A DNA stretch of 64,000 nt, taken from NCBI RefSeq assembly GCF_007995155.1, contig NZ_CP042593.1, forward strand, positions 2,274,001 through 2,338,000. Direction: 5' to 3'. This document shows, one piece after another, positions 38,690-52,916 of the stretch. The notes below the pieces were generated by a model. It worked only from the letters and a program-made list of their open reading frames with translations, was not told the origin of the DNA and ran no database searches. Position 1 is the stretch's first letter. Each line of letters opens with the position of its first letter. Source of the stretch: Cytobacillus dafuensis (lineage in GTDB: Bacteria; Bacillota; Bacilli; Bacillales; Cytobacillaceae). The position numbers and the translations under genes were made by a program.

Positions 38690-40018
38690 TTGGAAAAGCT
38701 AAATCCTGTAAAAGTTGGAACTTTAGGATTTCAGCATGTTTTGGCAATGTATGCGGGTGCTGTAATTGTTCCATTAATCGTCGGGCCTGCAATTGGTTTA
38801 AACGCTCAGCAACTAGCCTATTTAATTTCAATCGATTTATTCACCTGTGGGATAGCCACATTATTGCAGGTTATTGGCGGAAAGCATTTTGGAATAAAAT
38901 TGCCTGTCATATTAGGGTGTACCTTTACGGCAGTAGGACCAATGATTGCAATTGGGAAATTAGAAGGAATCACATCTATATACGGGGCCATTATTGTATC
39001 AGGAATAATTGTTATGATCCTATCCCAGTTTATGAGTAAAATCATGCGATTCTTTCCACCTGTGGTAACTGGTTCAGTTGTATCCATCATCGGAGTTTCC
39101 TTAATTCCGGTTGCAATGAATAATGCAGCAGGAGGTCTGGGATCTCCAGACTTTGGAAGTACGCAAAATCTACTTTTAGCCATATTAACTCTTGCCCTTA
39201 TTATAATAATAAACCGTTTCTTTAAGGGGTATATGAAAGCCATATCTGTCTTACTTTCCTTAATCGCAGGCACGGTTGTGGCATATTTTATGGGGATGGT
39301 TAGTTTTGATGATGTATCCAATGCCTCATGGTTTCATATCGTTCAGCCTTTTTATTTTGGATTTCCAACCTTTAGCTTCTCTGCCATCCTTACCATGACC
39401 CTTGTAGCCATTGTGAGCATGATAGAGTCGACTGGTGTTTTTTTAGCATTAGGTGATGTTTGTGATCGAAAGCTAGAATCTAGTGATATTAAAAAAGGAT
39501 TACGTGCTGAAGGACTTGCAGTTATAGTAGGTGGAATTTTTAATGCATTCCCATACACCTCTTTCTCGCAAAATGTGGGTTTAGTAGTTTTGACAAAAGT
39601 AAAAACGAGAAATGTTGTCATTTCTGCAGGGGTCATTTTAATGATTTTAGGTCTTTTGCCTAAGATCGCTGCTCTAACAACGATTATTCCAATGGCCGTT
39701 TTAGGGGGAGCGATGATTCCGATGTTTGGAATGGTTATTTCCTCCGGTGTAAGAATGCTTTCAGCGGTGGATTTTAGTAAAAATGAAAACCTATTAATCA
39801 TAGCCTGCTCAATCGGAATTGGACTTGGATCAGCAGTTGTTCCTGCAATATTTGGATCCCTCCCGACTAGTATCCGCTTATTAGTAGAAAACGGAATTGT
39901 ATTAGGAAGTTTGACAGCAATTTTATTAAATTTGGTCTTTAACTATAAAGATTTAAATATATCTGAAAGTGAGCAAGTCAATCAGCTGAAAAGTGATCAT
40001 TCGGTGGATGTCATTTAA
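38690..40018 (+). CDS. Xanthine/uracil permease (NCS2, PbuX-like)
   Basis: A 442-residue transporter with 12-14 membrane segments. The opening GTLGFQHVLAMYAGAVIVPL and the conserved IESTGVFLALGDVCDRKL (about 245-262) and NAFPYTSFSQNVGLV (about 284-298) motifs put it in the nucleobase-ascorbate family near xanthine permeases (QNVG signature). The TTG start has GGGGGG six bases upstream. First gene of the microcompartment operon, so xanthine (or a related oxopurine) is the likely cargo. Confidence 0.92.
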   Translation: MEKLNPVKVGTLGFQHVLAMYAGAVIVPLIVGPAIGLNAQQLAYLISIDLFTCGIATLLQVIGGKHFGIKLPVILGCTFTAVGPMIAIGKLEGITSIYGAIIVSGIIVMILSQFMSKIMRFFPPVVTGSVVSIIGVSLIPVAMNNAAGGLGSPDFGSTQNLLLAILTLALIIIINRFFKGYMKAISVLLSLIAGTVVAYFMGMVSFDDVSNASWFHIVQPFYFGFPTFSFSAILTMTLVAIVSMIESTGVFLALGDVCDRKLESSDIKKGLRAEGLAVIVGGIFNAFPYTSFSQNVGLVVLTKVKTRNVVISAGVILMILGLLPKIAALTTIIPMAVLGGAMIPMFGMVISSGVRMLSAVDFSKNENLLIIACSIGIGLGSAVVPAIFGSLPTSIRLLVENGIVLGSLTAILLNLVFNYKDLNISESEQVNQLKSDHSVDVI

Positions 40019-40074
40019 TAATCTGCTCTGTTAAATGAATAGAAGCAGAAATAAATAATAAAGGGAGAAGAACT

Positions 40075-41541
40075 ATGGATTTAATTCTTAAAAACGCAAA
40101 TATTCCTCAAGGAGATCGTCAAGTATTAACGAATATACTGGTAAAAGACGGAAAAATCGCAGGTTACTGCAACGATATTAGCATTTTAAACGCTGCACAG
40201 GTGATTGATGTAGGTGGAAAGCTCGTTGTTCCTGGGTGTATTGATCCTCATACTCATTTCATGGATCCAGGTTTTACGCATCGGGAAACCTTTGCAACAG
40301 GAAGTCGTTCCGCAGCCGCTGGTGGGTTAACGACAATTATTGATATGCCATGCTGCAGTAAGCCTTCAGTTCGAGATGGTGATAGTTTTCACAAGAAAAT
40401 TGGTCCAATTCGTGAACAAGCTTATGTTGATTATTGTTTCTGGGGTGGAATGACAGGGGAAGATGCACGTGAAGGCTGGATTGATAATATTTACCCTCAA
40501 ATTGAAGAAGGGGTAGTTGCATTTAAGGTTTATATGACACCTTCTGTACCTACTTTCCCAAGAGTTTCGGATGCCGAAATGCTAGAAATCTTTAAAAATG
40601 TTGCTAAAACAGGACTGCCTATAGGTGTACATGCAGAAAACTATGATATTTGTACGTTTAATTCCAAAAAATTAGAGAAGGAAGGACGGCTAGATGGTCC
40701 TGCATGGGCAGAAGCACGCTCAAGTCTAGCTGAGAAAGTGGCAATTGAATTAATCCTTAGCTTCGCCGAGGCAACGGATGCACGTGTACATGTTGTCCAT
40801 ATGAGTACAAAAGAAGGGGTAGAGCTCGTTAAGGCCGCTAAAAAACGAGGTGTGAAGGTTACAGCTGAAACATGTCCTCACTACCTTGTTTTAAATGCAC
40901 AAGACTCTATGTCAGAACGGGGATCATTTGCAAAAATTGCTCCGCCATTACGCGGCAAAGAAGATAACGAGTCTCATTGGCAAGCGCTTGCTGATGGAAC
41001 AATTGATTTTGTCGGTACAGACCATGCTCCATATGAAATTGCAACTGAAAAAGAATACTCTGGCTCTAACATTTGGAATACTTTCCCTGGTATTCCGGGT
41101 GTTGAAACAATGGTTCCGATTCTTGTAAGTGAAGGTCTTAATAAAGGGCGATTATCACTCTCTCGTTTCGTCGAGGTAACGAGCCGAAACGCAGCTATTC
41201 ATTATGGCATTTATCCGAAAAAAGGCTCAATGGAAATTGGTGCCGATGCTGATTTCACAGTCATTGATCTAGAAAAGGAATATGTAATAGATGAGCAAAA
41301 AACAGAATCAATGGCAAAATATAATCCTTTACATGGATTGAAATTAAAAGGAAAACCAGTTCAAACCATTATCCGTGGAAACATGATCTATGATGAGGAT
41401 GGCGGCGGTATTGTAGGGGAAGCAGGATATGGAGAGTATGTACGTCGTCAAAGCATTCAACGCCTAGAGCGAACACTAAAATATGAAAAATATGAAACTG
41501 TCAAAATCGAAACGAAAGAAGCGGTAACACAAAATTTATAG
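40075..41541 (+). CDS. Cyclic amidohydrolase (dihydropyrimidinase/allantoinase family); proposed xanthine ring-opening enzyme
   Basis: A 488-residue amidohydrolase with the full binuclear metal set: PGCIDPHTHFMDPG (about 55-68), carboxylated Lys in VAFKVYMTPS (about 149), VHAENYD (about 184), VHVVHMST (about 240) and GTDHAPY (about 318). The family hydrolyses cyclic amide bonds in dihydropyrimidines, hydantoins and allantoin. Given the permease upstream and UbiD downstream, hydrolysis of the six-membered ring of xanthine is my inference. After the barrel an extra helix YGEYVRRQSIQRLERTLKYE and a polar tail (about 446-488) could be an encapsulation signal. Alternatives: allantoinase or hydantoinase. 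Confidence 0.85.
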   Translation: MDLILKNANIPQGDRQVLTNILVKDGKIAGYCNDISILNAAQVIDVGGKLVVPGCIDPHTHFMDPGFTHRETFATGSRSAAAGGLTTIIDMPCCSKPSVRDGDSFHKKIGPIREQAYVDYCFWGGMTGEDAREGWIDNIYPQIEEGVVAFKVYMTPSVPTFPRVSDAEMLEIFKNVAKTGLPIGVHAENYDICTFNSKKLEKEGRLDGPAWAEARSSLAEKVAIELILSFAEATDARVHVVHMSTKEGVELVKAAKKRGVKVTAETCPHYLVLNAQDSMSERGSFAKIAPPLRGKEDNESHWQALADGTIDFVGTDHAPYEIATEKEYSGSNIWNTFPGIPGVETMVPILVSEGLNKGRLSLSRFVEVTSRNAAIHYGIYPKKGSMEIGADADFTVIDLEKEYVIDEQKTESMAKYNPLHGLKLKGKPVQTIIRGNMIYDEDGGGIVGEAGYGEYVRRQSIQRLERTLKYEKYETVKIETKEAVTQNL

Positions 41542-41573
41542 GTTTATGAATAGATAGAGAGGGTGATTGAATC

Positions 41574-42164
41574 ATGGAACTAAAAGGAAAAAAGCATTGT
41601 GTCGTCATTATTGACATGCTGAATGATTTTATTGGAGAGAATGCTGCATTACGCTGTGAAAATGGCGAAAAGATTGTTCCAAAAATTAGGGAGCTAATAG
41701 ATTTCGCACATGATCAAAATATTCAAGTTGTTCATGTCCAAGAAGCACATCGTAAAAATGATCGGGATTTCCGTGTAAGGCCGGTTCATGCAGTAAAGGG
41801 AACGTGGGGATCACAATTTATTCCTGAGTTACTGCCTGAAGAAGATAAGGGAGACTATGTTGTTCAAAAGAGGAGACATAGTGCTTTTAGCTACACAGAC
41901 TTTGATCTCTTTTTAAGAGAGGAAGAGATTGATACTGTCGTTTTGACGGGTGTCTGGACGAATGTGTGTGTACGAAGCACAGCTTCAGATGCTCTTTATC
42001 ACGGCTATCATATTATCTGTATTTCTGATGGAACGGCCTCTCAGGATGATGACATGCATCGATCAGGATTAAGAGATATTGATATTTTTGGAGATATTAT
42101 GACGACTGAAGAATATAAAGAAGCAGCAAAATTAAAATTCTCCCAAGACCAACAGGTTGTCTAG
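41574..42164 (+). CDS. Isochorismatase-fold cysteine amidohydrolase; proposed ureido-imidazole amidase
   Basis: A 196-residue enzyme with the D-K-C triad of the family: Asp in VVIIDMLNDFIG (about 14), Lys in VVQKRRHSAFSYTDFD (about 95) and Cys in VVLTGVWTNVCVRSTASDAL (about 131). Relatives include N-carbamoylsarcosine amidase and the ureidoacrylate hydrolase RutB, which release CO2 and ammonia from ureido groups. That matches removal of the ureido group after ring opening, but nicotinamidase-like activity cannot be excluded. It overlaps the next gene by eight bases. Confidence 0.85.
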   Translation: MELKGKKHCVVIIDMLNDFIGENAALRCENGEKIVPKIRELIDFAHDQNIQVVHVQEAHRKNDRDFRVRPVHAVKGTWGSQFIPELLPEEDKGDYVVQKRRHSAFSYTDFDLFLREEEIDTVVLTGVWTNVCVRSTASDALYHGYHIICISDGTASQDDDMHRSGLRDIDIFGDIMTTEEYKEAAKLKFSQDQQVV

Positions 42165-42744
42165 CTTTAGACAAGAAGAAAGAAAAAAGCGTATTTTAGT
42201 GGGAATAACCGGAGCAAGCGGATCATTGTATGCTTATGCATTGGTCCGTGCTCTCCATCAATTAGGAATTGAAACACACTTAATTGTAACGGAGATGGGA
42301 GAAAAAGTAATGCAATTTGAGTGTAACAAGAAGATGGATGAGCTCAAGGAATATGCCACTATTCATAGCAATAAAAACCTGTTTGCTTCCATTGCAAGCG
42401 GATCATACTTAACGGATGGGATGGTGATTGTCCCGTGCTCAATGAATACACTTGGTGCGATTGCAAATGGAGTCGGAGATACTTTGCTAAGCAGAGCGGC
42501 AAGTGTTGTTTTGAAAGAAAAACGAACCTTTATTATTGTTCCGAGAGAAGCACCTTTTAACTTAATTCATTTACGTAATATGACTGCACTTGCTGAGACT
42601 GGTGCTTGCATTATGCCTGCATCTCCTGGATTTTATCATAAACCAACAGAAATTTGGGAGCTAGCTAATTTTATGGTTGCACGTATTTTAGACATGCTGA
42701 ATATTGATCATCGGCTGCTTGAAAGGTGGGGAGAAAAGACATGA
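42157..42744 (+). CDS. ubiX: UbiX-like flavin prenyltransferase
   Basis: A 195-residue flavoprotein that prenylates FMN to make prFMN, the cofactor of UbiD decarboxylases. Motifs are ILVGITGASGSLYAYAL (about 13-29), LIVTEMGEKVMQFE, VIVPCSMNTLGAIANGVGD (about 91) and FIIVPREAPFNLIHLRNMTAL (about 130-150) with PASPGFYHKP. Its end overlaps the ubiD start by ATGA. The start is uncertain: TTG 42157 has no good ribosome site, but no better start precedes the conserved domain. Confidence 0.92.
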   Translation: MSSFRQEERKKRILVGITGASGSLYAYALVRALHQLGIETHLIVTEMGEKVMQFECNKKMDELKEYATIHSNKNLFASIASGSYLTDGMVIVPCSMNTLGAIANGVGDTLLSRAASVVLKEKRTFIIVPREAPFNLIHLRNMTALAETGACIMPASPGFYHKPTEIWELANFMVARILDMLNIDHRLLERWGEKT

Positions 42745-44078
42745 TTCCAGTAACTATGAGAGCATTATTAGATGACTGGGAAAATAGAGGTCTATTATAT
42801 CGTATAAAGAAAGAAGTAGATCCCCGCTATGAATTAGGTGCTGTTATTAATTCTAAACAAGGCAGACAGCCATTCCTTTTTGAAAAAATTAAAGGGTATC
42901 AATCATCAATGGCAGCAGGACTTGGCGGAGACCGTGATCTGGTTGCTGACAGTATTGGGGTACATACCTCAGAACTTATTCCAAAAATAATTGAATCTAT
43001 TGTGAATCCTATTCAAACAACTTTAAAAGAAACAGGTCCTGTTCAGGAGAATTTAGTAACAGGAGATTTTGATTTGGCTGATCTATTCCCAATACCAACT
43101 TATCATGAAAAGGACTCCGGGGCTTATTATGTTTCTGGCATTCTAGTTGTGAAGGATTTATCAGGGAATAAAAGGTACACCTCCATAAGGAGAATGCAAT
43201 ACCTGGGAGGAAATCGAACGAATATCTTAATTACTTCACCCGAATTATTGGAACAATATTCTCATTTTGAAAAACTTGGAGAACCTATGGAAGTGGCAGT
43301 AATGTTCGGTGTTGTCCCAGCAATCGTATTAAGTTCTCAGATTAGCACTCACCTCTATCACACAGATAAGCTAAATGTCGCAGGGGCATTACTTGGACAA
43401 TCCCTAGATGTTGTTCGCTGTAAAACAGTTGATTTAGATGTTCTGGCTGAAGCAGAAATTGTATTTGAAGGACAAATGCTTCCTCACGAGCGTGAAATGG
43501 AAGGACCGTTTGGGGAATTAGCAGGCTATTATGGCTTCCGTTCACCACAGCCAGTAGTTGAAATTTCTGCAGTTACCTACCGGAATAATGCAATTAATCA
43601 AACGATTTTCCCTTCAAGCTTCGAAGAGAAACTCCCAATGGCCCTTGTTCGTGAAGCGACACTATTAAGTACTGTAAGACAGGTTGTTCCAAGTATAAAA
43701 GGTGTACATATTCCTATGGGAGGTGTCGCGCGCTATCATGCAGTCATTCAAATCGAGAAGAAATCTGAAGGGGATGGAAAGCAAGCTGCACTTGCCGCTT
43801 TTGCAAGTGATAAAGATCTAAAGCATGTAGTAGTCGTTAATGATGACGTAGATATCTTTAATTCAGATGATGTAGAATGGGCGATCGCAACAAGGGTGCA
43901 GGCAGCCACTGATGTCTTCATAGTTCCTGGTGCTAAAGGCTCCCCTCTTGAATCATCTCATAATCTAAGAGGAGTGTCCGACAAAATGGGGATTGATGCG
44001 ACCTATCCATTAGGAATGGAAGAAATGTTTAAAAGAACATCTATACCAATAAAAATTAATATAGATGACTATCTCTAA
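42741..44078 (+). CDS. ubiD: UbiD-family prFMN-dependent decarboxylase; proposed 4-amino-5-imidazolecarboxylate decarboxylase
   Basis: A 445-residue decarboxylase. The motifs YTSIRRMQYLGGNRTNI (prFMN/Mn region, about 148-164), HEREMEGPFGELAGYYG (the Glu-rich active-site strand, about 250-266) and DATYPLGMEEMFKR near the end are typical. UbiD enzymes decarboxylate unsaturated or heteroaromatic acids. In this operon a heteroaromatic acid from purine breakdown, 4-amino-5-imidazolecarboxylate, is the natural candidate. ATG 42741 with GGGGAG was preferred over the longer ORF start. It lies right before the shell genes. Confidence 0.88.
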   Translation: MIPVTMRALLDDWENRGLLYRIKKEVDPRYELGAVINSKQGRQPFLFEKIKGYQSSMAAGLGGDRDLVADSIGVHTSELIPKIIESIVNPIQTTLKETGPVQENLVTGDFDLADLFPIPTYHEKDSGAYYVSGILVVKDLSGNKRYTSIRRMQYLGGNRTNILITSPELLEQYSHFEKLGEPMEVAVMFGVVPAIVLSSQISTHLYHTDKLNVAGALLGQSLDVVRCKTVDLDVLAEAEIVFEGQMLPHEREMEGPFGELAGYYGFRSPQPVVEISAVTYRNNAINQTIFPSSFEEKLPMALVREATLLSTVRQVVPSIKGVHIPMGGVARYHAVIQIEKKSEGDGKQAALAAFASDKDLKHVVVVNDDVDIFNSDDVEWAIATRVQAATDVFIVPGAKGSPLESSHNLRGVSDKMGIDATYPLGMEEMFKRTSIPIKINIDDYL

Positions 44079-44105
44079 TATGTCATCTATAAGGTGTCAG
44101 GCACC
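44061..44105 (+). repeat. Stem-loop at the ubiD stop and GGTGTCAGGCACC palindrome
   Basis: ATAGATGAC/GTCATCTAT (44061-44069 and 44082-44090) forms a 9-bp stem overlapping the ubiD stop codon with no T-run, so it is not a typical terminator. Directly after it GGTGTCAGGCACC (44093-44105) is a short palindrome of a type I recall as common between genes in Bacillaceae. The remaining 100 bases before the first shell gene show nothing else. Confidence 0.6.
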
Positions 44106-44205
44106 ATTCGTAGACAATCGTCCTTGTGGAGTGGATAGTTTGGGATAAAACAATATTATAATCCTTTTATACATCTATCTGACATTGTAAAGGGAGGGAT
44201 GATTA

Positions 44206-44469
44206 ATGAAAGCAATCGGTATGATTGAAACGAGAGGACTAACAGCAGCCATTGAGGCACTTGATTCGATGGCAAAGGCAGCGAATGTAAGTCTTGTTGA
44301 TTTAAAAAGAGTTGGATCTGGTCTTGTTACCGTCATTGTAGAGGGTGATGTTGCAGCGGTAACTGCTGCAGTTGAAGTTGGAAAGACAGCACATAGCAGG
44401 ACTGGTGGAGAACTTGTCTCTTTTAATGTCATTCCTCGTCCACATTCAGAACTTGCTAAGATTCTTTAA
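44206..44469 (+). CDS. BMC-domain shell protein, hexamer type (BMC-H 1)
   Basis: An 87-residue single BMC domain: [20 protein letters not shown], then [19 protein letters not shown] and the conserved VIPRPHSEL end. It forms hexameric tiles of a protein shell whose central pore faces the transported metabolites. It is the shortest and most canonical of the three and likely the main facet protein. Ribosome site AGGGAGG. Confidence 0.95.
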
Positions 44470-44485
44470 TAGGAAGTGATTATTT

Positions 44486-45475
44486 TTGTCTGAATTTATG
44501 AAAAGTGTTGTGAAAGAAGTATTAAAGCCAACGCAAAAACCTAAGGAAAATCCTCTGTTTGGAAGTGAAACCAAGTTTTTATATACGAAATCAATCATAA
44601 ATAAAACAGCAGAAAGTAAACAAAATCAGACAATACAAGGAATAAGTCGTCCAAATTATCAACAAAAGAATCTACAAAAAAGACTATCAGGTATTTCAGT
44701 GGATTCTCCTAATCAAACAGAAAATCACTCTCCTAAAGCTGGATTCATTAGTCAACCAAACTCTCAATCACCTAGAAACAGTGTCGAGGGCTCACTTTCG
44801 AAATTACAAGCCCTATCGCTTGTTCAAGGAAATAACCCTATAAACACACATCACCAAGCCAATATCACAGTAAATCGAAATTTATTTAATGAAGAAAGTC
44901 AGTTTATTGGCCAATCAAGGGAAGGTGTGAAAGCGTGGGTATTTTCAGGCCTTCATCCAAATCTTCATCCATCCTTTCAGCGTTCGTTAAAGTCTAATTC
45001 AATTGGTGTTATTGTTGCGGAAAAATGTTCTGTTGGCCAGCTATTTTTATTAAATGATATTTTAAGAGAATTTTCTTCGATTAAATATTGCTTGACATGG
45101 GATAAGAATAGCAAACAAGACTTTGTTCTTGAGTTATATGAAGATCAGACAAAAATACTTACGCAAGCAGTGAAAATGCTGTTTCAAAGGCTTTCACAAA
45201 ATTCATTCAAACCAATTCAAGTCTTCAAGGCTAACTCTCCAGGCCCATGGCTGACAAAGCAGCTCGGTTTAAAAACACATGTTGATGGAGCTGCAGTTAT
45301 TGAAGGTATTGATTATTATTCAGCAATCCTCCTCTTAGACCGTTTATTAAAAAAATCACCGGGTACAACTTTTGATTATTCAATAGAAAAAAAATACTTA
45401 CTTCTATATGGAAATTACGAAATTATTTCACAAGTATCAGAAGAATTGAAGAACCAGGCTGAAAGATTAATGTAG
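44486..45475 (+). CDS. BMC-locus protein with amphipathic N-terminal helix, long disordered linker and two degenerate BMC-like domains
   Basis: A 329-residue protein I do not recognise as a named family. Residues 2-14 (SEFMKSVVKEVLK) would form a short amphipathic helix followed by Pro/Lys, like the encapsulation peptides of BMC cargo. Residues 15-150 are Ser/Asn/Gln-rich and look disordered, with a second short helix SKLQALSLVQ near 105. Residues about 182-240 (IGVIVAEKCSVGQLFLLNDI) and 269-325 (AAVIEGIDYYSAILLLDRLL, then LLLYGNYEIISQVSEEL) each follow the hydrophobic spacing of a BMC domain but lack its Gly/Ala motifs. TTG start with AGGAAGTGA. Possible roles are shell-to-cargo scaffold or divergent tandem-domain shell protein. 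Confidence 0.75.
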   Translation: MSEFMKSVVKEVLKPTQKPKENPLFGSETKFLYTKSIINKTAESKQNQTIQGISRPNYQQKNLQKRLSGISVDSPNQTENHSPKAGFISQPNSQSPRNSVEGSLSKLQALSLVQGNNPINTHHQANITVNRNLFNEESQFIGQSREGVKAWVFSGLHPNLHPSFQRSLKSNSIGVIVAEKCSVGQLFLLNDILREFSSIKYCLTWDKNSKQDFVLELYEDQTKILTQAVKMLFQRLSQNSFKPIQVFKANSPGPWLTKQLGLKTHVDGAAVIEGIDYYSAILLLDRLLKKSPGTTFDYSIEKKYLLLYGNYEIISQVSEELKNQAERLM

Positions 45476-45509
45476 TTTCTTTAAGTCAATTTGATAGGAG
45501 GCAATTCAT

Positions 45510-45878
45510 TTGCATGCATTAGGGTTAATTGAAACAGTTGGCTATTTAACAGCTGTTTCGGCTGCAGATGCTGCCGTTAAAGCAGCTAATGTTGAGATTG
45601 TAGGTATTGAAAAGGTAATTGGTGTGAGCGGCTACCTCGGTGTGACCATCCATTTAAGTGGGGATGTAGCGGCTGTTAAATCTGCAGTTGATGCTGGAAA
45701 GAGCGCTGCAGATCGAGTAGGAAAGGTTATTTCTTCACATGTCATCCCGAGAGCTCATAACGAAGTGGCCAATAAGCTACTTCCGAATTTTAAGCTTGAG
45801 AAGAAATCTATAATTAAGGATGAAAATGACTTAACAACAGAAGGTAACTTAGAAGATACGGATCATTCAAATGAATAG
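45510..45878 (+). CDS. BMC-domain shell protein with C-terminal extension (BMC-H 2)
   Basis: A 122-residue BMC protein: [20 protein letters not shown], then [20 protein letters not shown] and [17 protein letters not shown]. After the domain (about 88) there is an acidic 33-residue tail ending [12 protein letters not shown]. The insert GVSGYLGV in the pore-adjacent strand is longer than in its neighbours, suggesting a different pore. TTG start with GGAGG eight bases upstream. Confidence 0.92.
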
Positions 45879-45897: not shown

Positions 45898-46182
45898 ATG
45901 GGTGAAGCTTTAGGTTTAGTAGAAACAAAGGGTTTAGTCGGGGCAGTTGAAGCGGCAGATGCAATGGTTAAGGCAGCAAATGTTGAAATTTGCGGATATG
46001 AGAAGGTAGGCTTCGGATTAGTAACAGTTATGGTAAGAGGTGATGTGGGTGCTGTGAAAGCGGCAACCGATGCAGGAGCAGATGCAGCTAGCCGCGTTGG
46101 GGAGCTAGTATCCGTCCATGTAATTCCTAGACCACATAGTGAAGTTGAGAGAGTGTTATTATCCAAAAACAGTGGTGAATAG
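45898..46182 (+). CDS. BMC-domain shell protein (BMC-H 3)
   Basis: A 94-residue BMC domain: [20 protein letters not shown], then [20 protein letters not shown] and [17 protein letters not shown]. Canonical PduA/EutM-like facet protein. The start at 45898 has GGGGAGG ten bases upstream; the longer reading from 45871 overlaps the end of the previous gene and is unlikely. Confidence 0.95.
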
Positions 46183-46184
46183 TG

Positions 46185-46928
46185 ATGGGCATTGAAAGGC
46201 AGAGTGCGCTGACGGAAAACACTCTGTATGAACTGTGTAATCGAAATGGCAGTGGAAGGCGAATCAATAAGAGAAAACCATATGTCCTGGCTCTTATCAC
46301 CTCTCATTTGATTGGAATGGAACCAGGACTATCTTATTTGAGAGATTTATCGAATGCTCAAATGATGCTGCGAATTTCTGCAGAAGATGAACTGTTCTCA
46401 CATTTTTCATTACAAGAGCTTGTGAATTTAATTGGAAACGATGATTGGATTCTGCAAAGAGAATTATCTGAAATGATCATTAATCAGGTGGATATTATTT
46501 TTTTACCAATCCTCTCATTCTCACTCGTTTCAGATATTCTTTCATATAATGATCGAAGACTATTGGTTCGAATCATTTTAAAGGCAATATTATCCGGAAA
46601 AAAAGTAATCGGATTGAGATTAGGAGCAGACCCCTATCATCCAATTTGGCGAATGAAGGGCATGGATAAAGGACCACAGATTTTAAAAAGAAAACTTCAA
46701 GAGCAATTGCAAGGGTTAAAGTCATTGGGGATTAAATTAATTGATACAAATGAAAAAATAGACTTTACTTTTGAAAAAGCATATAAAAAATCAATTATTA
46801 CGGAGAAAACGATTCGATATGTCCATCAAAACAATCAATCATTTTTATTTATTTCGAATGAGACAATTTTAACACCACTTGCCAAGGATTTGGCAAGAGA
46901 GTTGAAAATATCATTAATTACAGAATAA
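46185..46928 (+). CDS. Flavoprotein-like protein of BMC locus, function unknown
   Basis: A 247-residue soluble protein. After about 28 residues KPYVLALITSHLIGMEPGLS begins a Rossmann-like fold; IIFLPILSFSLVSDILSYND and ILKAILSGKKVIGLRLGADP resemble the later strands of the flavoprotein (UbiX/PF02441-like) family, and LFISNETILTPLAKDLAREL ends it. Proteins of this broad type occur in several BMC operons, but the FMN-binding residues are not clear here. It could be a flavin-related accessory or a degenerate relative. Starts next to the BMC-H 3 stop, before the vertex gene. Confidence 0.5.
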   Translation: MGIERQSALTENTLYELCNRNGSGRRINKRKPYVLALITSHLIGMEPGLSYLRDLSNAQMMLRISAEDELFSHFSLQELVNLIGNDDWILQRELSEMIINQVDIIFLPILSFSLVSDILSYNDRRLLVRIILKAILSGKKVIGLRLGADPYHPIWRMKGMDKGPQILKRKLQEQLQGLKSLGIKLIDTNEKIDFTFEKAYKKSIITEKTIRYVHQNNQSFLFISNETILTPLAKDLARELKISLITE

Positions 46929-46942
46929 GGGGACGGTCTTTT

Positions 46943-47221
46943 ATGCAAATGGGAATAGTGGTTGGTCGGATTACTGCAACGAGAAAGGATGAAAATCTAG
47001 TAGGTACGAAGCTATTAATTACACAACCGATTGGACTAGACGGACAAGTTCTGCCAAACCCCATTATTGCCGTTGATACTGTTGGAGCTGGAATTGGTGA
47101 AAGGGTAATATATGTAACTGGAAGTATGGCTTCAAGAGCTATCAGGAACAAAGATGCGCCCATTGATGCTGCAATTATAGGAATTATTGATAGTTTAGAG
47201 GGAACGACGTTGGGAGGGTAA
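46943..47221 (+). CDS. BMC vertex protein (EutN/CcmL family, BMC-P)
   Basis: A 92-residue pentamer-forming protein closing the vertices of the icosahedral shell: MQMGIVVGRITATRKDENLV, then LLITQPIGLDG, VAVDTVGAG-type segment AVDTVGAGIGERVIYVTGS and AAIIGIIDSLEG. With three BMC-H genes the set is enough for a closed shell. Confidence 0.95.
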   Translation: MQMGIVVGRITATRKDENLVGTKLLITQPIGLDGQVLPNPIIAVDTVGAGIGERVIYVTGSMASRAIRNKDAPIDAAIIGIIDSLEGTTLGG

Positions 47222-47223
47222 CA

Positions 47224-49047
47224 ATGGACGCTCTAAAAATTAAAGAAGCAATACAATATAGGAAATTAATAGATGTTTTGTTGAATCCAAACCTCTATGC
47301 GGACATTGTTCTAAGAGGAGGATATTTTATCAATGTGATTACCCGTGAAATCTATGAAGCGGATGTAGCGATAAAAGGCCAATATATTTTAATGGTCGGT
47401 GATGCAAAAGATTTAATTGGTCCTAAAACGATTATAGAAGAGGTACGTGGAAAATTTATATGTCCTGGTTTTATTGATTCACATATGCATTTTGAAAGTG
47501 CGATGCTTACTTGTACAGAATTTTCAAAGCTATCTATTCCAACTGGAACGACAACATTAATCGGTGATCCACATGAGATAGGAAATGTTCTCGGTGTTCA
47601 AGGAATGAAAGCGATGATTGAGGAAGCCAAGACTCTTCCAAATCGAATCTTATTCACTGTTCCTTGTGCAGTGCCTGACGCACCTGGTCTTGAAACATCA
47701 GGATTTGATGTTTCAGCTAAGGACATGAAGGAATTATTAAATGACCCATATGTTCAAGGAATCGGTGAGATTCAAAGCTTTAGCAATATCCAGCCTGTTT
47801 ATCAGCATGCCCCAGAATTGATTGATGATCTTGTTGCAGCCGTTTCTTATGCGAACAGTATTGGGAAAACGGTTGAAGGTAATGCCCCTGGTTTATTTGG
47901 AAAAGAGCTTGCTGCGCATATTATTAGCGGAGGCACACATGTATCCTGTCATGAAACGACAACAAAGGAAGAGACGGTAGAAAAGCTTCGTTATGGCGTT
48001 AGTGTATTCATGAGGGAAGGCTCATCACAAAGGAATATGGCTGAATGCATTAGAGCGATTACGGAAGATGGATTGGATTCAAGAAGGGCGATTCTTGTTT
48101 CAGATGATATGGTTCCAGCTGATCTTCTGAAGTATGGCCATATGAATGATATTGTTCGACGTACTATTCATGAGGGGATTGACCCAGTCGAAGCCATTCA
48201 AATGGCAACGATTAACCCAGCGACTCATTTTGGTTTTAAAGATGTGGGTGTTATTGCTCCTGGAAAGCGTGCGGATGTTGTTGTAATAAGTGATTTAATG
48301 AATATGACAATTGATCAAGTCTATCTTGGAGGAAAAAAAGCGGCCGAAAAAGGAGAGCTTACTATTGAGATTTCCTCTTATATTTATCCAGAAACAGTGA
48401 AAAAATCGATAAAACGTAAAGCTGTTAATAAAGAAGATATTGTTATTAAAGCAAATGGAACTAAAGCAAATGGAACAAAGGCAAGAGTACGAGCAATCGA
48501 AGCAATTCCTTTTCAGAACCTAACAGGTGGAAGTGAATATACGCTTAATGTGAAAGATGGAACTGTACAGCCTTGCATACAGCAGGATGTATTGCCGCTT
48601 CTTGTAGTGGAACGTCACGGAAGAACAGGGAAAATTGGAAAAACCTTTTTACACGGCTTTGATCTGAAATTCGGTGCTATCGCTGAAAGTGTTGCCCACG
48701 ATACACATAATATTATCGCAACTGGTACGAATTATGAGGATATAGTGACGGCTATCAATCGAGTAATCGCAATGGGTGGCGGAATTGCTATGATCAAAGA
48801 TAGCAAAGTAGTTGGCGACTTGCCGCTCCGAATTGGAGGATTAATGACAGATGAATTATCAGGCAAGGAATTAAGTGAAAAGGTTGATGAGTTATCTAAG
48901 CTTGCAAAGAATGAGCTTGGATGCGGAATAGAAGTACCGTTCATGCATTTGTCCTTTTGGTCACTTGTTACAAGTCCTAAGTGGAAAATTACGGATATGG
49001 GCTTGATTGATGTTGATAAATTTGAAATCATACCGACGATTGTTTAA
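47224..49047 (+). CDS. AdeC-family deaminase inside the BMC operon; proposed 4-aminoimidazole deaminase
   Basis: A 607-residue paralogue of the adenine deaminase at 28.9 kb with the same metal motifs: PGFIDSHMHFESAMLTCTEF (about 78), TTLIGDPHEIGNVLG (about 113), LVSDDMVPADLL (about 293) and VERHGRTGKIGKTF with AHDTHNIIATGTNYED (about 460-505). The presence of a separate ade makes a second adenine deaminase redundant, and an amino-azole substrate fits the pathway. Between the two catalytic parts is a tandem five-residue repeat KANGTKANGT (direct 15-base repeats at 48448-48477). GGGAGGG ribosome site, two bases after the vertex gene. Confidence 0.85.
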   Translation: MDALKIKEAIQYRKLIDVLLNPNLYADIVLRGGYFINVITREIYEADVAIKGQYILMVGDAKDLIGPKTIIEEVRGKFICPGFIDSHMHFESAMLTCTEFSKLSIPTGTTTLIGDPHEIGNVLGVQGMKAMIEEAKTLPNRILFTVPCAVPDAPGLETSGFDVSAKDMKELLNDPYVQGIGEIQSFSNIQPVYQHAPELIDDLVAAVSYANSIGKTVEGNAPGLFGKELAAHIISGGTHVSCHETTTKEETVEKLRYGVSVFMREGSSQRNMAECIRAITEDGLDSRRAILVSDDMVPADLLKYGHMNDIVRRTIHEGIDPVEAIQMATINPATHFGFKDVGVIAPGKRADVVVISDLMNMTIDQVYLGGKKAAEKGELTIEISSYIYPETVKKSIKRKAVNKEDIVIKANGTKANGTKARVRAIEAIPFQNLTGGSEYTLNVKDGTVQPCIQQDVLPLLVVERHGRTGKIGKTFLHGFDLKFGAIAESVAHDTHNIIATGTNYEDIVTAINRVIAMGGGIAMIKDSKVVGDLPLRIGGLMTDELSGKELSEKVDELSKLAKNELGCGIEVPFMHLSFWSLVTSPKWKITDMGLIDVDKFEIIPTIV

Positions 49048-49087
49048 GGGTCATGCCCTTTGAAAAACTTAATTTTGGAGGGAAATC

Positions 49088-49771
49088 ATGGGAGTCAAAT
49101 TAGTAGATTTAACTCAGGAAATCTATCATGGGATGCCAGTCTTCCCTCTTCATCCATCAACAATGATTTTTACCAATATTACACATGAAGAATCAGAAAA
49201 AAAGATTGGTTTTCCTTTTGCTACCAACAATTTAATTATAAATGAGCATGGTCCAACCCATAGCGATGCTACATATGAATATGATCCTAATGGGAAATAC
49301 ATTGATGAGATGCCTTTAGAATATTTTTATGGCCCTGCAGTATGTCTGGATCTATCACATGTTTCTCCAGACCGCTCTATTAGTAGTCGCGATCTTGAAG
49401 AGTCATTAGCGGGGTCAGGGCAATTTATTGAAAAAGGAGACATTGTTCTGCTCTACACTGGGCATTACAACCGCTCATACGGGACGGAGAATTGGCTTAC
49501 AACCTATACAGGTCTTGATTATCATGCAGCAAAGTGGCTGGCTGAATTGGGTGTCGTCAATATTGGAATAGATGCACCTGCAATTGATCATCCAGATGAC
49601 CCTAATTACTCAGGGCATTTAATATGCAGAGAATATGGCATGACAAACACTGAGAATCTTTGTAATCTTGACCAAATCGCAGGTATGCGTTTTTTATACT
49701 TCGGTCTACCGCTTCGGATTCGAAAAGGAACGGGTTCCCCTATCCGTGCAGTCGCTGTTTTCATTGAATAA
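49088..49771 (+). CDS. Cyclase-family (kynurenine-formamidase-like) hydrolase; proposed imidazolonase
   Basis: A 227-residue metal hydrolase of the cyclase family: MGVKLVDLTQEIYHGMPVFP at the start, the metal motif NEHGPTHSDATYEYDP (about 55-70), DIVLLYTGHYNRSYG and the conserved NIGIDAPAIDHPDDP (about 158-172). Members hydrolyse formamides or cyclic amides using Zn or Mn. In this operon, opening of the five-membered 4-imidazolone ring to formiminoglycine is my inference; another amide substrate is possible. Confidence 0.82.
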   Translation: MGVKLVDLTQEIYHGMPVFPLHPSTMIFTNITHEESEKKIGFPFATNNLIINEHGPTHSDATYEYDPNGKYIDEMPLEYFYGPAVCLDLSHVSPDRSISSRDLEESLAGSGQFIEKGDIVLLYTGHYNRSYGTENWLTTYTGLDYHAAKWLAELGVVNIGIDAPAIDHPDDPNYSGHLICREYGMTNTENLCNLDQIAGMRFLYFGLPLRIRKGTGSPIRAVAVFIE

Positions 49772-49788
49772 AATTGGTGGGTGATTTC

Positions 49789-50412
49789 ATGAGAAATGTT
49801 TTTAATAGAGAAAAAATCCGTGAAGAAATCATTATTCCTCCTTATGAAGGGAGGAGTGCTTTTTTAAGAAAAGGAGAAGAGCTCATCATCATCGATTTGG
49901 AAGGTAAGCAGGTTGGTGATTTTATCTGCTTTAGTCATTCCGATCCTACAGAACATGTTTCCCCTGTCCATATGAGAGCTTCTTTAAGCAGCATCCGTTT
50001 AAAAAAAGGAGATCTCCTCTATAGTAATCGGCGCCGCCCCCTTATGCAGCTTTTAGAAGATACGGTGGGAGTTCATGATATCTTCTTCCCAGCATGTGAT
50101 TATTACCGTTATAAAATTGATTTCGATAAAGAGGATCATCCAAATTGCCACGATAATCTTGAAACAGCTCTAAAAAAGTACAAAATTCAACCTGCTGTCA
50201 TTCCGGATCCAATTAATCTTTTTATGAATAATGTGGTAGATGATTCGGGTGATTATGTAATCGAAGAACCGCTTTCAAAACCAGGTGATTATGTAAGATT
50301 AAAGGCTTTGGATGATGTAGTTATTGCTTGCACAACTTGTTCACAAGATATGGCTCCCGTGAACGGATGGAAGGTAACTTCATTAATAATGCAAATTGTG
50401 GAGGCGGAATAA
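49789..50412 (+). CDS. DUF1989 (urea-carboxylase-associated / CgdAB-like) protein; proposed formiminoglycine deiminase
   Basis: A 207-residue DUF1989 protein: EEIIIPPYEGRSAFLRKGEE at the start, LEGKQVGDFICFSHSDP, and the family-typical Cys motif IACTTCSQDMAPVNGW near 186-201. Two DUF1989 proteins form carboxyguanidine deiminase (CgdAB) in guanidine breakdown, showing that the fold can remove an imino nitrogen. Here no partner subunit or urea carboxylase is near. Acting on the formimino group is inferred from context. ATG 49789 has GGTGG; an earlier TTG start was rejected. Confidence 0.8.
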   Translation: MRNVFNREKIREEIIIPPYEGRSAFLRKGEELIIIDLEGKQVGDFICFSHSDPTEHVSPVHMRASLSSIRLKKGDLLYSNRRRPLMQLLEDTVGVHDIFFPACDYYRYKIDFDKEDHPNCHDNLETALKKYKIQPAVIPDPINLFMNNVVDDSGDYVIEEPLSKPGDYVRLKALDDVVIACTTCSQDMAPVNGWKVTSLIMQIVEAE

Positions 50413-51582
50413 ATGGATGAGATTCAATTTCTTCAAAGTTTACTCCGCACTAATAGTTCAAATCCCCCTGGAAACGAGCATAAAGTAACGGAAGTTTTTA
50501 TTGAAAGATGCAAGAAAATAGGTTTGCCATTTAAAATAACATATCTTGAAGAAAACCGAAGTAATTTGGAAATCACACTTAAGGGACATGGAGAAAAACA
50601 CTTAATCCTATGTGGGCATATGGATACGGTTTCACCGGGTAAGACCGAATGGGATTATCATCCTTATTCAGGTGAAATCGTTGAAGATAAGATATATGGA
50701 AGAGGAGCTTCTGACATGAAAAGCGGCCTAGCGGCCATGTATCTTGCTCTTGAATCCTTGTTTATAGAAAAGAAAACACCTCCTGCTACGATTACTTTTT
50801 TGGCAACTGCTGGTGAAGAAGTGGATAGCTGTGGTGCTAGGGTCTTTCTTGAAGGAAACGAAGCGAGAGTAATTGATGCACTTGTCATAGGCGAACCTAC
50901 AAATGAAAAGGTAGTAGTCGGACATAAAGGAGCTCTATGGCTCGAAATTACAACTTACGGAAAAACTGCTCACGGTTCTATGCCTGACCACGGTATAAAT
51001 GCTGTGGACCATATGGTAAGTATCATTAATATTTTGGAATCTATAAAAGTTGATTGGCAAATGGAGAAGCAGCCTCTCGGGAAGAGCAGTCTTGCTGTAA
51101 CAATGATAGAAGGCGGTATTCAAACAAATGTCATTCCTGATAGATGTACAATTCGAGTGGATATTCGGACAATACCTCCGCAAACTCATCAGACCTTAGT
51201 TGATGAGCTAAATAAAAGATTAGAAAGTCTAGTTGGAAAAAATGAAATCTATAAATTTAGTATTTCAATGATATTAGATCGTCCACCTATTTTAACCCCA
51301 GCTTCATCGAACATCATTCAATGTGCCTTAGCCATCAAAAATGAAATAGACTCAAACTGCTCAGGTGTTTCTTACTATACGGATGCAGCAGTTCTCAATC
51401 CTAGAAGTGAAATACCGACGTTAATATATGGACCTGGAGATGAGAAATTGGCTCATCAGCCAAATGAATGGGTTAGTATTTCCTCTTATAGACGCTCTAT
51501 CGATTTTTATAAAGCTTTGATTTTATCTTTTGATGAAAAAATGATAGCAGAGCCTAATCCATTTCGCGGAGGATTCAAATGA
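50413..51582 (+). CDS. M20 family amidohydrolase (ArgE/DapE-like); proposed N-formylglycine deformylase
   Basis: A 389-residue zinc amidohydrolase. Metal motifs are LILCGHMDTVSPGKTEWDYH (His-x-Asp, about 59-78), GRGASDMKSGLAAM (Asp, about 97), TAGEEVDSCGA (Glu-Glu, about 137) and VIGEPTNEKVVVGHKGA; the C-terminal His is in KLAHQPNEWVS. The family removes acyl groups from N-acyl amino acids and also includes YgeY of anaerobic urate breakdown. Hydrolysis of formylglycine to glycine and formate fits as the last step. It overlaps the next gene by ATGA. Confidence 0.85.
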   Translation: MDEIQFLQSLLRTNSSNPPGNEHKVTEVFIERCKKIGLPFKITYLEENRSNLEITLKGHGEKHLILCGHMDTVSPGKTEWDYHPYSGEIVEDKIYGRGASDMKSGLAAMYLALESLFIEKKTPPATITFLATAGEEVDSCGARVFLEGNEARVIDALVIGEPTNEKVVVGHKGALWLEITTYGKTAHGSMPDHGINAVDHMVSIINILESIKVDWQMEKQPLGKSSLAVTMIEGGIQTNVIPDRCTIRVDIRTIPPQTHQTLVDELNKRLESLVGKNEIYKFSISMILDRPPILTPASSNIIQCALAIKNEIDSNCSGVSYYTDAAVLNPRSEIPTLIYGPGDEKLAHQPNEWVSISSYRRSIDFYKALILSFDEKMIAEPNPFRGGFK

Positions 51583-52916
51583 GAAGTATTCTAATAAAAA
51601 ATGCCGAAATCATAACGATGAATGAAAAGGAAGAGATTTTAAAAGGGGATATCTATATTGAAGATGATCGTATTGTTGAAATCGGAAAAAACCTTTCTCA
51701 TTTTGCAAGCAAAGTAATCGATGCAACTGGCCGAACAGTAATTCCAGGATTTATCCAGACACATATTCACCTTTGCCAAACATTGTTCAGAGGACAGGCT
51801 GATGATTTGGAATTAATGGATTGGCTGAAGCAAAAAATTTGGCCGCTTGAAGCATCTCATGACGAGGAATCTATTTATTATTCTGCCATGCTAGGCATTG
51901 GAGAGTTATTACAAAGCGGGACTACCACCGTTGTTGATATGGAAACCGTTCATCATACTGACTCTGCTTTTAAAGCAATTGCCGAAAGCGGGATCCGTGC
52001 TTTAGCCGGAAAAGTCATGATGGATAAAGGAGACGAAGTCCCGGTTCTTTTAAGAGAAAATACAAAGGAATCCATTCAGAAAAGCGTTGATTTACTTGAA
52101 AAATGGCATTATCATGACGGCGGCAGAATCCAATATGCATTTTGTCCAAGGTTTGTTGTCTCATGCACGGAGGAATTATTAATAAATGTAAGAGACCTTT
52201 CAGCCAAATATCATGTAAGAGTCCATACGCATGCCTCTGAAAATGCGAATGAAATATTGATAGTAGAGCGTGAACATGGTATGAGGAATGTTGTTTATTT
52301 AGATAGTATCGGCCTAGCAAATGAGAGGTTGATTCTTGCCCATTGTGTATGGCTGAACGAAGAAGAAAAGAGAATCATTAAGGAACGGGGTGTTAAGGTT
52401 AGCCACTGTCCTGGTTCGAATCTAAAGCTCGCTTCCGGTATCGCTGAAGTCCCATCCCTTCTTGATTCGCATTCCTATGTTAGCCTTGGTGCGGACGGAG
52501 CCCCTTGTAATAATAACCTTGATATGTTCAATGAAATGAGACTTGCAGCCATCATTCAGAAGCCTGCTCATGGACCAACAGCTATGAATGCTAGAACGGT
52601 TTTTCGAATGGCAACCATTGGTGGTGCAAAAGCAGTAGGAATGGAAAATGAAATAGGCAGCATTGAGCTTGGAAAAAAAGCGGATCTTGCCATTTTAAAT
52701 TTAAATGATTTTCATATATATCCTTCCTTTGATATTGATCCCATCTCAAGAATTGTTTATTCTGCAACAAGAGCAGATGTGGAATCAACCATTGTAAATG
52801 GGAAAATTTTAATGGAAAATAGAAGGATGAACACGATAGACAAGGATATCATATTAAAGGAATCAAATAAATCAATCAAACGTTTGACCAAAAGACTAGA
52901 ATCAATTATGTATTGA
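51579..52916 (+). CDS. Amidohydrolase of the TrzA/SsnA/guanine-deaminase group; proposed guanine or aminopurine deaminase
   Basis: A 445-residue mononuclear-metal deaminase: PGFIQTHIHLCQTLFRGQAD (about 55-74), VRVHTHASENANE (about 209), LILAHCVWLNEEE (about 246), VSHCPGSNLKLASG and LGADGAPCNNNLDMF (about 302). The DLELMDWLKQKIWPLE segment is common to guanine, 8-oxoguanine and 5'-deoxyadenosine deaminases and to SsnA-like enzymes. Feeding guanine to xanthine would suit the operon. It could instead be the aminoimidazole deaminase. Last gene of the operon; I see no strong terminator after it. Confidence 0.82.
   Translation: MRSILIKNAEIITMNEKEEILKGDIYIEDDRIVEIGKNLSHFASKVIDATGRTVIPGFIQTHIHLCQTLFRGQADDLELMDWLKQKIWPLEASHDEESIYYSAMLGIGELLQSGTTTVVDMETVHHTDSAFKAIAESGIRALAGKVMMDKGDEVPVLLRENTKESIQKSVDLLEKWHYHDGGRIQYAFCPRFVVSCTEELLINVRDLSAKYHVRVHTHASENANEILIVEREHGMRNVVYLDSIGLANERLILAHCVWLNEEEKRIIKERGVKVSHCPGSNLKLASGIAEVPSLLDSHSYVSLGADGAPCNNNLDMFNEMRLAAIIQKPAHGPTAMNARTVFRMATIGGAKAVGMENEIGSIELGKKADLAILNLNDFHIYPSFDIDPISRIVYSATRADVESTIVNGKILMENRRMNTIDKDIILKESNKSIKRLTKRLESIMY

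What the first reader, a model, noticed from the sequence alone, without database searches (positions are those of the whole stretch)
38690..52916. Microcompartment operon with enzyme classes for clostridial-type xanthine breakdown to glycine and formate
Seen: permease, cyclic amidohydrolase, cysteine amidase, UbiX, UbiD, three BMC-H, one BMC-P, AdeC paralogue, cyclase-family hydrolase, DUF1989, M20 deacylase and a guanine-deaminase-like enzyme, all one strand with overlaps or short gaps. Known: purinolytic clostridia open xanthine to 4-ureido-5-imidazolecarboxylate, then go via 4-amino-5-imidazolecarboxylate, 4-aminoimidazole, 4-imidazolone and formiminoglycine to glycine. Inference: every step has an enzyme of the right class here in roughly pathway order, and the shell would hold reactive aminoimidazole intermediates. 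Published BMC surveys list purine-linked or unknown-function types (I recall labels like XAU and BUF) but I cannot check whether this exact pathway has been described.
Basis: partly seen in the sequence, partly recalled or inferred. Interest (0 to 1): 0.95.

Follow-up and report, generated by a model that had tools for sequence, protein, structure and literature searches.

The report
Xanthine-degrading microcompartment operon, folate-free variant
This bacterial operon probably builds a protein-shelled organelle that breaks the purine xanthine down to glycine; the organelle type was already predicted in print, but here its last steps appear to use different enzymes from those of the classic clostridial pathway, and one shell protein has diverged beyond recognition by standard profiles.

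Summary
In detail: 38690-52916 is a one-strand operon with an NCS2 permease, cyclic amidohydrolase, isochorismatase-fold amidase, UbiX, UbiD, three BMC-H, one BMC-P and five further hydrolases. It belongs to a published organelle type: BUF1, proposed in 2019 as the xanthine-utilisation (Xau) microcompartment. The genes of the xanthinase pathway were reported in 2023 (paper not held here). The host lies near Cytobacillus citreus; 29 of 36 sampled genomes of its genus (itself included) have this UbiD. Support for the purine role: the divergent operon encodes xanthine dehydrogenase behind a guanine-class riboswitch, and in one relative the operon is followed by a glycine-riboswitch/glycine-cleavage operon. 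Details I did not find in the papers I could read: (1) ORF 44486-45475, without Pfam match, is a hidden PduB/EutL-type BMC-T; (2) formiminotransferase and DUF1989 exclude each other in 57 of 57 genomes, so the Bacilli probably finish without folate, DUF1989 deiminating formiminoglycine and M20 deformylating N-formylglycine (only three independent switches); (3) linkage assigns 4-imidazolone opening to the cyclase-family enzyme; (4) the AdeC paralogue has Asn where adenine deaminases have His, in 54 of 54. No activity was tested.

The parts
28882..30621 (-). adenine deaminase (AdeC2), end of the divergent purine operon
   Evidence: Pfam Adenine_deam_C and Amidohydro_1; has His202, as solved adenine deaminase 3nqb has
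30646..32013 (-). second NCS2-type purine permease
   Evidence: Pfam Xan_ur_permease
32076..33211 (-). two XdhC-type ORFs (molybdenum hydroxylase maturation)
   Evidence: Pfam XdhC_CoxI and XdhC_C
33208..37540 (-). xanthine dehydrogenase-type genes: Mo subunit 33208-35541, FAD subunit 35526-36407, MocA-like 36444-37049, FeS subunit 37049-37540
   Evidence: Pfam; such genes lie in the fetched stretch in 47 of 53 related loci
37859..37957 (-). purine riboswitch aptamer (guanine class) in the xdh leader
   Evidence: RF00167, 76.3 bits, gathering score 37; class read by me from the alignment
38690..40018 (+). xanthine permease (PbuX type)
   Evidence: TIGR03173 557 bits, cut-off 414
40075..41541 (+). 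XauA, cyclic amidohydrolase; proposed xanthine amidohydrolase (xanthinase)
   Evidence: Pfam; best solved match L-hydantoinase 1gkr; adjacent to the next gene in 49 of 49 loci that have them
41574..42164 (+). isochorismatase-fold amidohydrolase; proposed 4-ureido-5-imidazolecarboxylate hydrolase
   Evidence: Pfam; best solved match 3hb7, also N-carbamoylsarcosine amidase 1nba; D14, K99, C132 in 56 of 56 rows (that these are the catalytic triad is recalled)
42157..42744 (+). UbiX-type flavin prenyltransferase (makes prFMN)
   Evidence: TIGR00421, 206 bits, cut-off 109
42726..44078 (+). UbiD decarboxylase; proposed 4-amino-5-imidazolecarboxylate decarboxylase
   Evidence: Pfam UbiD domains; [quoted passage not shown]
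44206..44469 (+). BMC-H shell protein 1
   Evidence: PF00936 98 bits
44486..45475 (+). hidden BMC-T (PduB/EutL type) with an N-terminal helix resembling an encapsulation peptide, a long low-confidence linker and an RPNYQ motif
45510..45878 (+). BMC-H shell protein 2 (C-terminal extension)
   Evidence: PF00936 86 bits
45871..46182 (+). BMC-H shell protein 3
   Evidence: PF00936 102 bits
46182..46928 (+). divergent flavoprotein-like protein
   Evidence: no Pfam match itself; clostridial counterparts in L038 and L007 match PF02441, and PF15953 weakly; alignment A2, 22-23% identity to L007 and L008
46943..47221 (+). BMC-P pentamer
   Evidence: PF03319 104 bits
47224..49047 (+). AdeC paralogue; proposed 4-aminoimidazole deaminase
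   Evidence: Pfam; Asn in 54 of 54 where AdeC2 and solved adenine deaminase 3nqb have His
49088..49771 (+). cyclase-family hydrolase; proposed 4-imidazolonase
   Evidence: PF04199; kynurenine formamidase and isatin hydrolase among solved matches; tracks the pathway; directly before formiminotransferase and cyclodeaminase in G437
49774..50412 (+). DUF1989 protein; proposed formiminoglycine deiminase
   Evidence: PF09347; excludes formiminotransferase; Cys108, Cys125, Cys189 and His122 conserved
50413..51582 (+). M20 deacylase; proposed N-formylglycine deformylase
   Evidence: PF01546; in 40 of 45 stretches with DUF1989 and 0 of 8 without
51579..52916 (+). TRZ/ATZ-type deaminase; proposed purine-entry (guanine-type) deaminase
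   Evidence: NF005557 731 bits, cut-off 522; not found in 11 of 53 stretches; purine riboswitch before it in L051 and L052

Best explanation
It is a Bacilli version of the BUF1/Xau microcompartment. Xanthine enters through the permease or from other purines through the neighbouring dehydrogenase and deaminases. XauA opens the pyrimidine ring to 4-ureido-5-imidazolecarboxylate, the isochorismatase-fold enzyme removes the carbamoyl group, UbiD (with prFMN from UbiX) decarboxylates to 4-aminoimidazole, the AdeC paralogue deaminates this to 4-imidazolone, and the cyclase-family enzyme opens the ring to formiminoglycine. Here the pathway leaves the clostridial route: DUF1989 deiminates formiminoglycine to N-formylglycine and the M20 enzyme releases glycine and formate, without folate. 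The shell (three BMC-H, BMC-P and a hidden BMC-T whose N-terminal helix may tie shell to core) most likely confines the UbiD and AdeC steps and so 4-aminoimidazole. Shown: gene content, conservation, homology, predicted fold of the shell protein, exclusion pattern. Inferred: every activity, the order of steps and what is encapsulated.
For: Gene families. Xanthine dehydrogenase-type operon alongside with a guanine-class riboswitch; 9 of 22 scanned stretches have a purine aptamer before xdh genes. XauA and the amidase are adjacent in 49 of 49, also where they lie away from the shell cluster. UbiD's best solved match acts on a five-membered heteroaromatic acid. AdeC His-to-Asn in 54 of 54. Cyclase orthologue in 10 of 12 pathway genomes, 0 of 17 controls; cyclase, formiminotransferase and cyclodeaminase in a row in G437. 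Formiminotransferase in 11 of 11 genomes without DUF1989 and 0 of 46 with it; three independent switches, all reciprocal. DUF1989 family includes carboxyguanidine deiminase (passage in PMC11271267). Glycine as product: glycine riboswitch, SHMT, serine dehydratase and glycine cleavage genes downstream in G931. BMC-T.
Against: No activity is tested. The exclusion rests on three independent switches, too few for significance (sign test p 0.25). M20 was not found in 5 of 45 DUF1989 stretches. Cohnella L006 has shell, UbiD, AdeC, cyclase and DUF1989, but its genome shows no XauA orthologue (best 33%). Clostridial G369 (89% complete) shows no close cyclase and G362 only fragments. I noticed no encapsulation peptide on the enzymes (by eye only), so what is inside is open. 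Direct profile comparison of the BMC-T ORF with BMC-H gave 3.1%. Ravcheev 2019 gave the five-ring opening to another hydrolase.
Confidence: 0.75

Rival explanations
1. Same organelle and pathway, but the DUF1989 and M20 enzymes do not process formiminoglycine; they serve another nitrogen compound, and something elsewhere in the genome replaces the missing formiminotransferase.
For: DUF1989 is known from other reactions (carboxyguanidine deiminase, a domain of TMAO demethylase; passages). M20 was not found in 5 of 45 DUF1989 stretches. The exclusion has only three independent switches.
Against: The exclusion is exact over 57 genomes; two of the switches are between sister branches with 100% support (L051/L052, L053/L054); DUF1989 lies in the locus in 45 of 45 such stretches.
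Confidence: 0.25
2. The shell handles a different ring compound (a hydantoin, a dihydropyrimidine or an imported imidazole carboxylate), and xanthine is not the substrate.
For: XauA's best solved matches are hydantoinases and allantoinases. Cohnella L006 has the shell genes but no XauA orthologue, and a creatininase-family gene upstream.
Against: A xanthine permease, xanthine dehydrogenase-type genes, further purine deaminases and a guanine-class riboswitch surround it; the xanthinase gene cluster is reported for Clostridia and Bacilli (PMC12507026 citing Tong 2023, passages).
Confidence: 0.07
3. The cyclic amidohydrolase beside the amidase opens 4-imidazolone and another protein opens xanthine, as Ravcheev 2019 may imply for Amet_4584.
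For: Text of PMC6620236. That Amet_4584 is the counterpart of this gene is my inference from gene numbers; no Alkaliphilus metalliredigens sequence was examined.
Against: Only one cyclic amidohydrolase is in the operon; it is next to the ureido amidase in 49 of 49 and with UbiD in G437 and G362, where no shell genes were found nearby, as expected of the first steps; the cyclase lies before formiminotransferase in G437.
Confidence: 0.1

Closest known systems
BUF1 / Xau xanthine-utilisation microcompartment (Axen 2014 as cited; Ravcheev 2019, PMC6620236)
   Same: No aldehyde dehydrogenase in the operon; permease, ring-opening hydrolases, amidohydrolases, aromatic decarboxylase, BMC shell, xanthine dehydrogenase genes nearby; reported in two Bacillus genomes as well as Alkaliphilus.
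   Different: The 2019 scheme ends with formiminoglycine and a tetrahydrofolate formiminotransferase (reported as absent from the two Bacillus clusters; no replacement proposed in what I read). Here DUF1989 and M20 are proposed to finish, the cyclase is proposed as imidazolonase, and a hidden BMC-T is recognised.
Anaerobic xanthinase pathway of purinolytic clostridia (Rabinowitz and Pricer 1956 as cited; genes: Tong 2023 Cell Chem Biol, not held)
   Same: Same proposed intermediates down to formiminoglycine; PMC12507026 (passages) says its gene cluster occurs in Clostridia and Bacilli.
   Different: Whether Tong 2023 describes the shell, DUF1989 or M20 could not be read. In G437 and G362 XauA, amidase and UbiD lie together with no shell genes in the fetched stretches; their genomes were not searched for BMC genes.
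PduB / EtuB / EutL trimeric shell proteins (BMC-T)
   Different: 12-13% identity to these, no Pfam match in the Bacilli tested (window, L005), and about 135 N-terminal residues, mostly of low model confidence, with a helix resembling an encapsulation peptide.
Carboxyguanidine deiminase CgdAB (DUF1989)
   Same: Same protein family (passage in PMC11271267); deimination chemistry (recalled); conserved cysteines with spacing close to the zinc site of the TMAO demethylase DUF1989 domain.
   Different: One protein here, not a pair, and a different proposed substrate; the CgdAB paper is not held.

Membership tests
BUF1 / Xau microcompartment | BMC shell genes (hexamer and pentamer) in one locus with the enzymes | tested here: met
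   three PF00936 and one PF03319 in the operon
BUF1 / Xau microcompartment | no aldehyde dehydrogenase in the locus | tested here: met
   none among the operon's ORFs scanned
BUF1 / Xau microcompartment | ring-opening hydrolase, amidohydrolases, aromatic decarboxylase | tested here: met
BUF1 / Xau microcompartment | xanthine dehydrogenase genes in the genome, usually alongside | tested here: met
   37540-33208, divergent; in 47 of 53 related stretches
BUF1 / Xau microcompartment | formiminotransferase XauG (clostridial members; not defining for the type) | tested here: not met
   no PF02971 match in G000; PMC6620236 reports it absent from the cluster of two Bacillus members too
BUF1 / Xau microcompartment | shell-protein clades as in the published BUF1 locus diagrams | not testable with these tools
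   supplementary files not readable; Sutter 2021 seen in passages only
BUF1 / Xau microcompartment | shell forms and encloses the pathway | not testable with these tools
   needs microscopy and purification
BMC-T (PduB/EutL type) for ORF 44486-45475 | two BMC domains in tandem | tested here: met
   model, Foldseek and VIA, counterparts in L038 and L040 with two PF00936 stretches each, profile comparison with these 96.9%; against it: no Pfam match of its own and 3.1% against the BMC-H profile
xanthinase pathway | activity of the first enzyme on xanthine | not testable with these tools
   needs assay
adenine deaminase (for 47224-49047) | histidine in the motif GHA(S/R)G of AdeC2 and 3nqb | tested here: not met
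   Asn in 54 of 54 operon paralogues; His in AdeC2 and in 3nqb; whole-protein score just above the family cut-off, 476.8 against 472.5

The most novel reading that the evidence does not exclude
In Bacilli the Xau organelle has a folate-independent ending: a DUF1989 enzyme is a formiminoglycine deiminase, followed by an M20 N-formylglycine deformylase; the cyclase-family enzyme is the 4-imidazolonase; and a hidden BMC-T with a built-in peptide resembling an encapsulation signal links shell to core around the 4-aminoimidazole step.
Probability: 0.5. Interest if true: 0.62.

Novelty: new variant of a known kind. Interest (0 to 1): 0.48.

Why it matters
The Xau organelle has been proposed from genomes; in the passages I read nobody had tested it. 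This locus is a complete, widely conserved operon in Bacilli, some of them named strains, with one predicted enzyme for each step. It yields sharp tests: two enzyme families (DUF1989, cyclase) get specific activities, an AdeC subfamily gets a marker residue, and the locus points to 4-aminoimidazole as the confined intermediate. If right, the same shelled core can be joined to two different endings, one using folate and one not.

Tried and rejected
Profile comparison of the 44486 ORF with BMC-H gave 3.1% and does not by itself support homology; the case rests on the clostridial counterparts and the fold. Considered and rejected: the cyclase as N-formylglycine deformylase (it also occurs in genomes with formiminotransferase, so it should act before formiminoglycine); the TRZ/ATZ deaminase as a core enzyme (not found in 11 of 53 stretches; in two of those genomes, G246 and G320, it lies just beyond); the riboswitch as the published xanthine-II variant (U51G there, PMC9295807 passage; U51 kept here, read by eye). 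Promoter and terminator scans were at chance level (56 against a mean of 52.0; 12 against 10.1) and are not used. Folding of 12 riboswitch leaders shows a stem that uses the 3' strand of P1 before a U tract in window, L002, L003, L051 and L086, and in L005 by reading the printed structure, which would predict an ON switch; for the xdh leaders of L001, L052 and L082 it is unclear; a lead only. L030 (G285) is in the tree but not in the 53-locus count, as only 4.3 kb was held. In residue counts some genomes enter more than once (for DUF1989 G417 twice, as L037 and L099; for the amidase the second copies too). Stretch counts can miss genes beyond a stretch; L040 ends inside AdeC. One search printed nothing (run before the stretches were there).

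Papers: searches (no paper; 25 of 71 listed; 15 of 80; 15 of 20; 25 of 73). No listed title is about a DUF1989 formiminoglycine enzyme or a BMC-T of this locus, but unlisted papers, supplementary files and Tong 2023 were not seen.


Full report
WHAT IS THERE. The reported operon is real. Window 38690-52916 encodes, all on the + strand: an NCS2 xanthine permease, a cyclic amidohydrolase, an isochorismatase-fold amidase, UbiX, UbiD, a BMC-H, an ORF without Pfam match, two more BMC-H, a second ORF without Pfam match, a BMC-P, an adenine-deaminase paralogue, a cyclase-family hydrolase, a DUF1989 protein, an M20 deacylase and a TRZ/ATZ-type deaminase. UbiD may start at the ATG at 42741 rather than the GTG at 42726. 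Downstream lie a CoA-binding protein and two type II topoisomerase subunit genes. By my reading of the alignment its letters at positions 51 and 74 (numbering recalled) are U and C, as in the guanine class.

HOST AND SPREAD. The window lies in a 4.9-Mb single-contig genome; the nearest named relative found is Cytobacillus citreus FJAT-49705, with a 97% identical UbiD. With UbiD as probe (E up to 1e-60), 39 of 193 genomes of the family match, among them 29 of 36 of the genus; both counts include the window's own genome. Wider, evenly drawn samples, own genome included, gave 10 of 348 in the order (E up to 1e-110), 15 of 348 in the class (1e-110) and 17 of 398 in the phylum (1e-100); some of these are other UbiD enzymes without the operon (12 such rows form a separate branch). 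From these and I took 53 loci of 53 other genomes in which UbiD, BMC-H2 and AdeC occur together. In the fetched stretches UbiX is present in 53, three BMC-H in 53, BMC-P in 52, XauA and the amidase in 49, cyclase in 48, DUF1989 in 45, the TRZ/ATZ deaminase in 42 and M20 in 40, and xanthine dehydrogenase-type genes in 47.

PRIOR ART. Ravcheev 2019 (PMC6620236; abstract, passages and one section seen) described this kind of BMC locus in five Firmicutes, two of them Bacillus, proposed anaerobic xanthine degradation and named it Xau. A human-microbiome survey (PMC8156839, passages) links this to BUF1; the 2021 catalogue (PMC8217296, passages) mentions BUF1-3 but not the word xanthine in its main text; a 2024 review (PMC11346464, one passage) lists XAU for xanthine. 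PMC12507026 (passages) states that the gene cluster of the xanthinase pathway was identified in 2023 (Tong et al., Cell Chem Biol; not held) and occurs in Clostridia and Bacilli. So the type and its main pathway are known; what follows are details that I did not find in what I could read.

FIRST STEPS. XauA and the isochorismatase-fold amidase are adjacent on one strand in 49 of the 49 stretches that have them. In G417 and G1078 the shell cluster lacks both, but the pair lies together about 9-11 kb beyond it on the other strand; in G1121 XauA lies at a like place (the amidase there was not looked at). In G437 and G362, with no shell genes in the fetched stretches, XauA, the amidase and UbiD lie together, and each has a second XauA-amidase pair. 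This is expected if XauA makes the substrate of the amidase: xanthine to 4-ureido-5-imidazolecarboxylate to 4-amino-5-imidazolecarboxylate. The amidase keeps D14, K99 and C132 in 56 of 56 rows. [quoted passage not shown]

DEAMINASE AND RING OPENING. Where the neighbouring adenine deaminase and solved adenine deaminase 3nqb have a histidine (GHASG, GHARG), the operon's AdeC paralogue and its 53 relatives have Asn, 54 of 54; it scores at the edge of the adenine deaminase cut-off (476.8 against 472.5). That the histidine is an active-site residue is recalled. This fits a changed substrate such as 4-aminoimidazole. The cyclase-family enzyme has kynurenine formamidase and isatin hydrolase among its solved matches. 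An orthologue of 58% identity or more is in 10 of 12 pathway genomes (in G195 in two pieces; G362 has fragments only; G369, 89% complete, best 30%) and in 0 of 17 control genomes without a UbiD match, whose best is 33%. In G437 it stands directly before formiminotransferase and cyclodeaminase genes. I therefore assign it to 4-imidazolone opening, the step before formiminoglycine. Ravcheev 2019 gave that step to another hydrolase.

THE ENDING. Clostridia pass formiminoglycine to tetrahydrofolate by a formiminotransferase (PMC3519856, passages, which did not detect its gene in C. acidurici). That gene is in the stretch in L007, L008 and L040 and near the cluster in G246, G320 and G395. Searches over 57 genomes with this UbiD give an exact exclusion: PF02971 is found in 11 of 22 and 0 of 35 whole genomes; DUF1989 is found in the other 11 of the 22 whole genomes and in the locus of all 35 (these 35 were not searched genome-wide for DUF1989). 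So 46 have DUF1989 and no formiminotransferase, and 11 the reverse. Two of the 11 are in the window's own family: G017, with the transferase in its locus (L052), and G068, with it elsewhere. On a UbiD tree the label needs at least three changes and all three independent pairs go in opposite directions; with three pairs the sign test cannot reach significance (p 0.25). M20 is in 40 of 45 stretches with DUF1989 and 0 of 8 without. The DUF1989 family includes carboxyguanidine deiminase (PMC11271267 passage), and this protein keeps Cys108, Cys125 and His122 in 47 of 47 rows and Cys189 in 46 of 46, spaced 17 and 64 apart, against 16 and 64 for the zinc cysteines that PMC12560246 gives for TMAO demethylase (passages). 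The simplest reading is that DUF1989 deiminates formiminoglycine and M20 deformylates the product. In the five loci without M20 another deformylase would have to act.

PRODUCT AND REGULATION. In G931 the operon is followed, after a permease gene, by a glycine riboswitch and genes for serine hydroxymethyltransferase, serine dehydratase and the T, H and P proteins of glycine cleavage, as expected if glycine is the product; such a riboswitch was seen in one of 22 scanned stretches. A purine aptamer precedes the xanthine dehydrogenase-type genes in 9 of the 22 and the TRZ/ATZ deaminase in two.

VERDICT. A well-supported member of the known BUF1/Xau type, with a probably folate-free ending in Bacilli that deserves a bench test. 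No activity, shell or growth phenotype has been shown here.

Noticed in passing
window 37859-37957 (-): Purine riboswitch of the guanine class in the leader of a xanthine dehydrogenase-type operon; folding suggests that a terminator uses the 3' strand of P1, which would make it an ON switch.
   Followed up: partly
window 37760-37825 (+) and 19346-19411 (+): Two Bacillaceae-1 RNA elements (RF01690), one between the purine aptamer and the xdh genes.
   Followed up: no
G000:C1:2780522-2782106 (L113): A second microcompartment locus in the same genome: five BMC-domain matches, PduL-type phosphotransacylase, aldehyde dehydrogenase, class II aldolase and CoA transferases, resembling fucose/rhamnose-type organelles (the resemblance is recalled).
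   Followed up: partly
L006 (Cohnella caldifontis) 7892-18661: Shell cluster with UbiX/UbiD, AdeC, cyclase, DUF1989 and M20 but no XauA orthologue found in the genome; a creatininase-family gene lies upstream.
   Followed up: partly
L038 8585-9394 and L039 12683-13492: Clostridial loci add a gene between BMC-H3 and the flavoprotein-like gene; in L038 it matches MreB/FtsA/HSP70-type ATPase families.
   Followed up: no
L090 (G1053): Shell cluster with no BMC-P match in the stretch and only 31 bases between the flavoprotein-like gene and AdeC; the pentamer may be elsewhere.
   Followed up: no
window 38093-38443 (+): Small MpsC-domain protein (PF10057, exactly at its cut-off) upstream of the operon, found in many of the related loci.
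   Followed up: no
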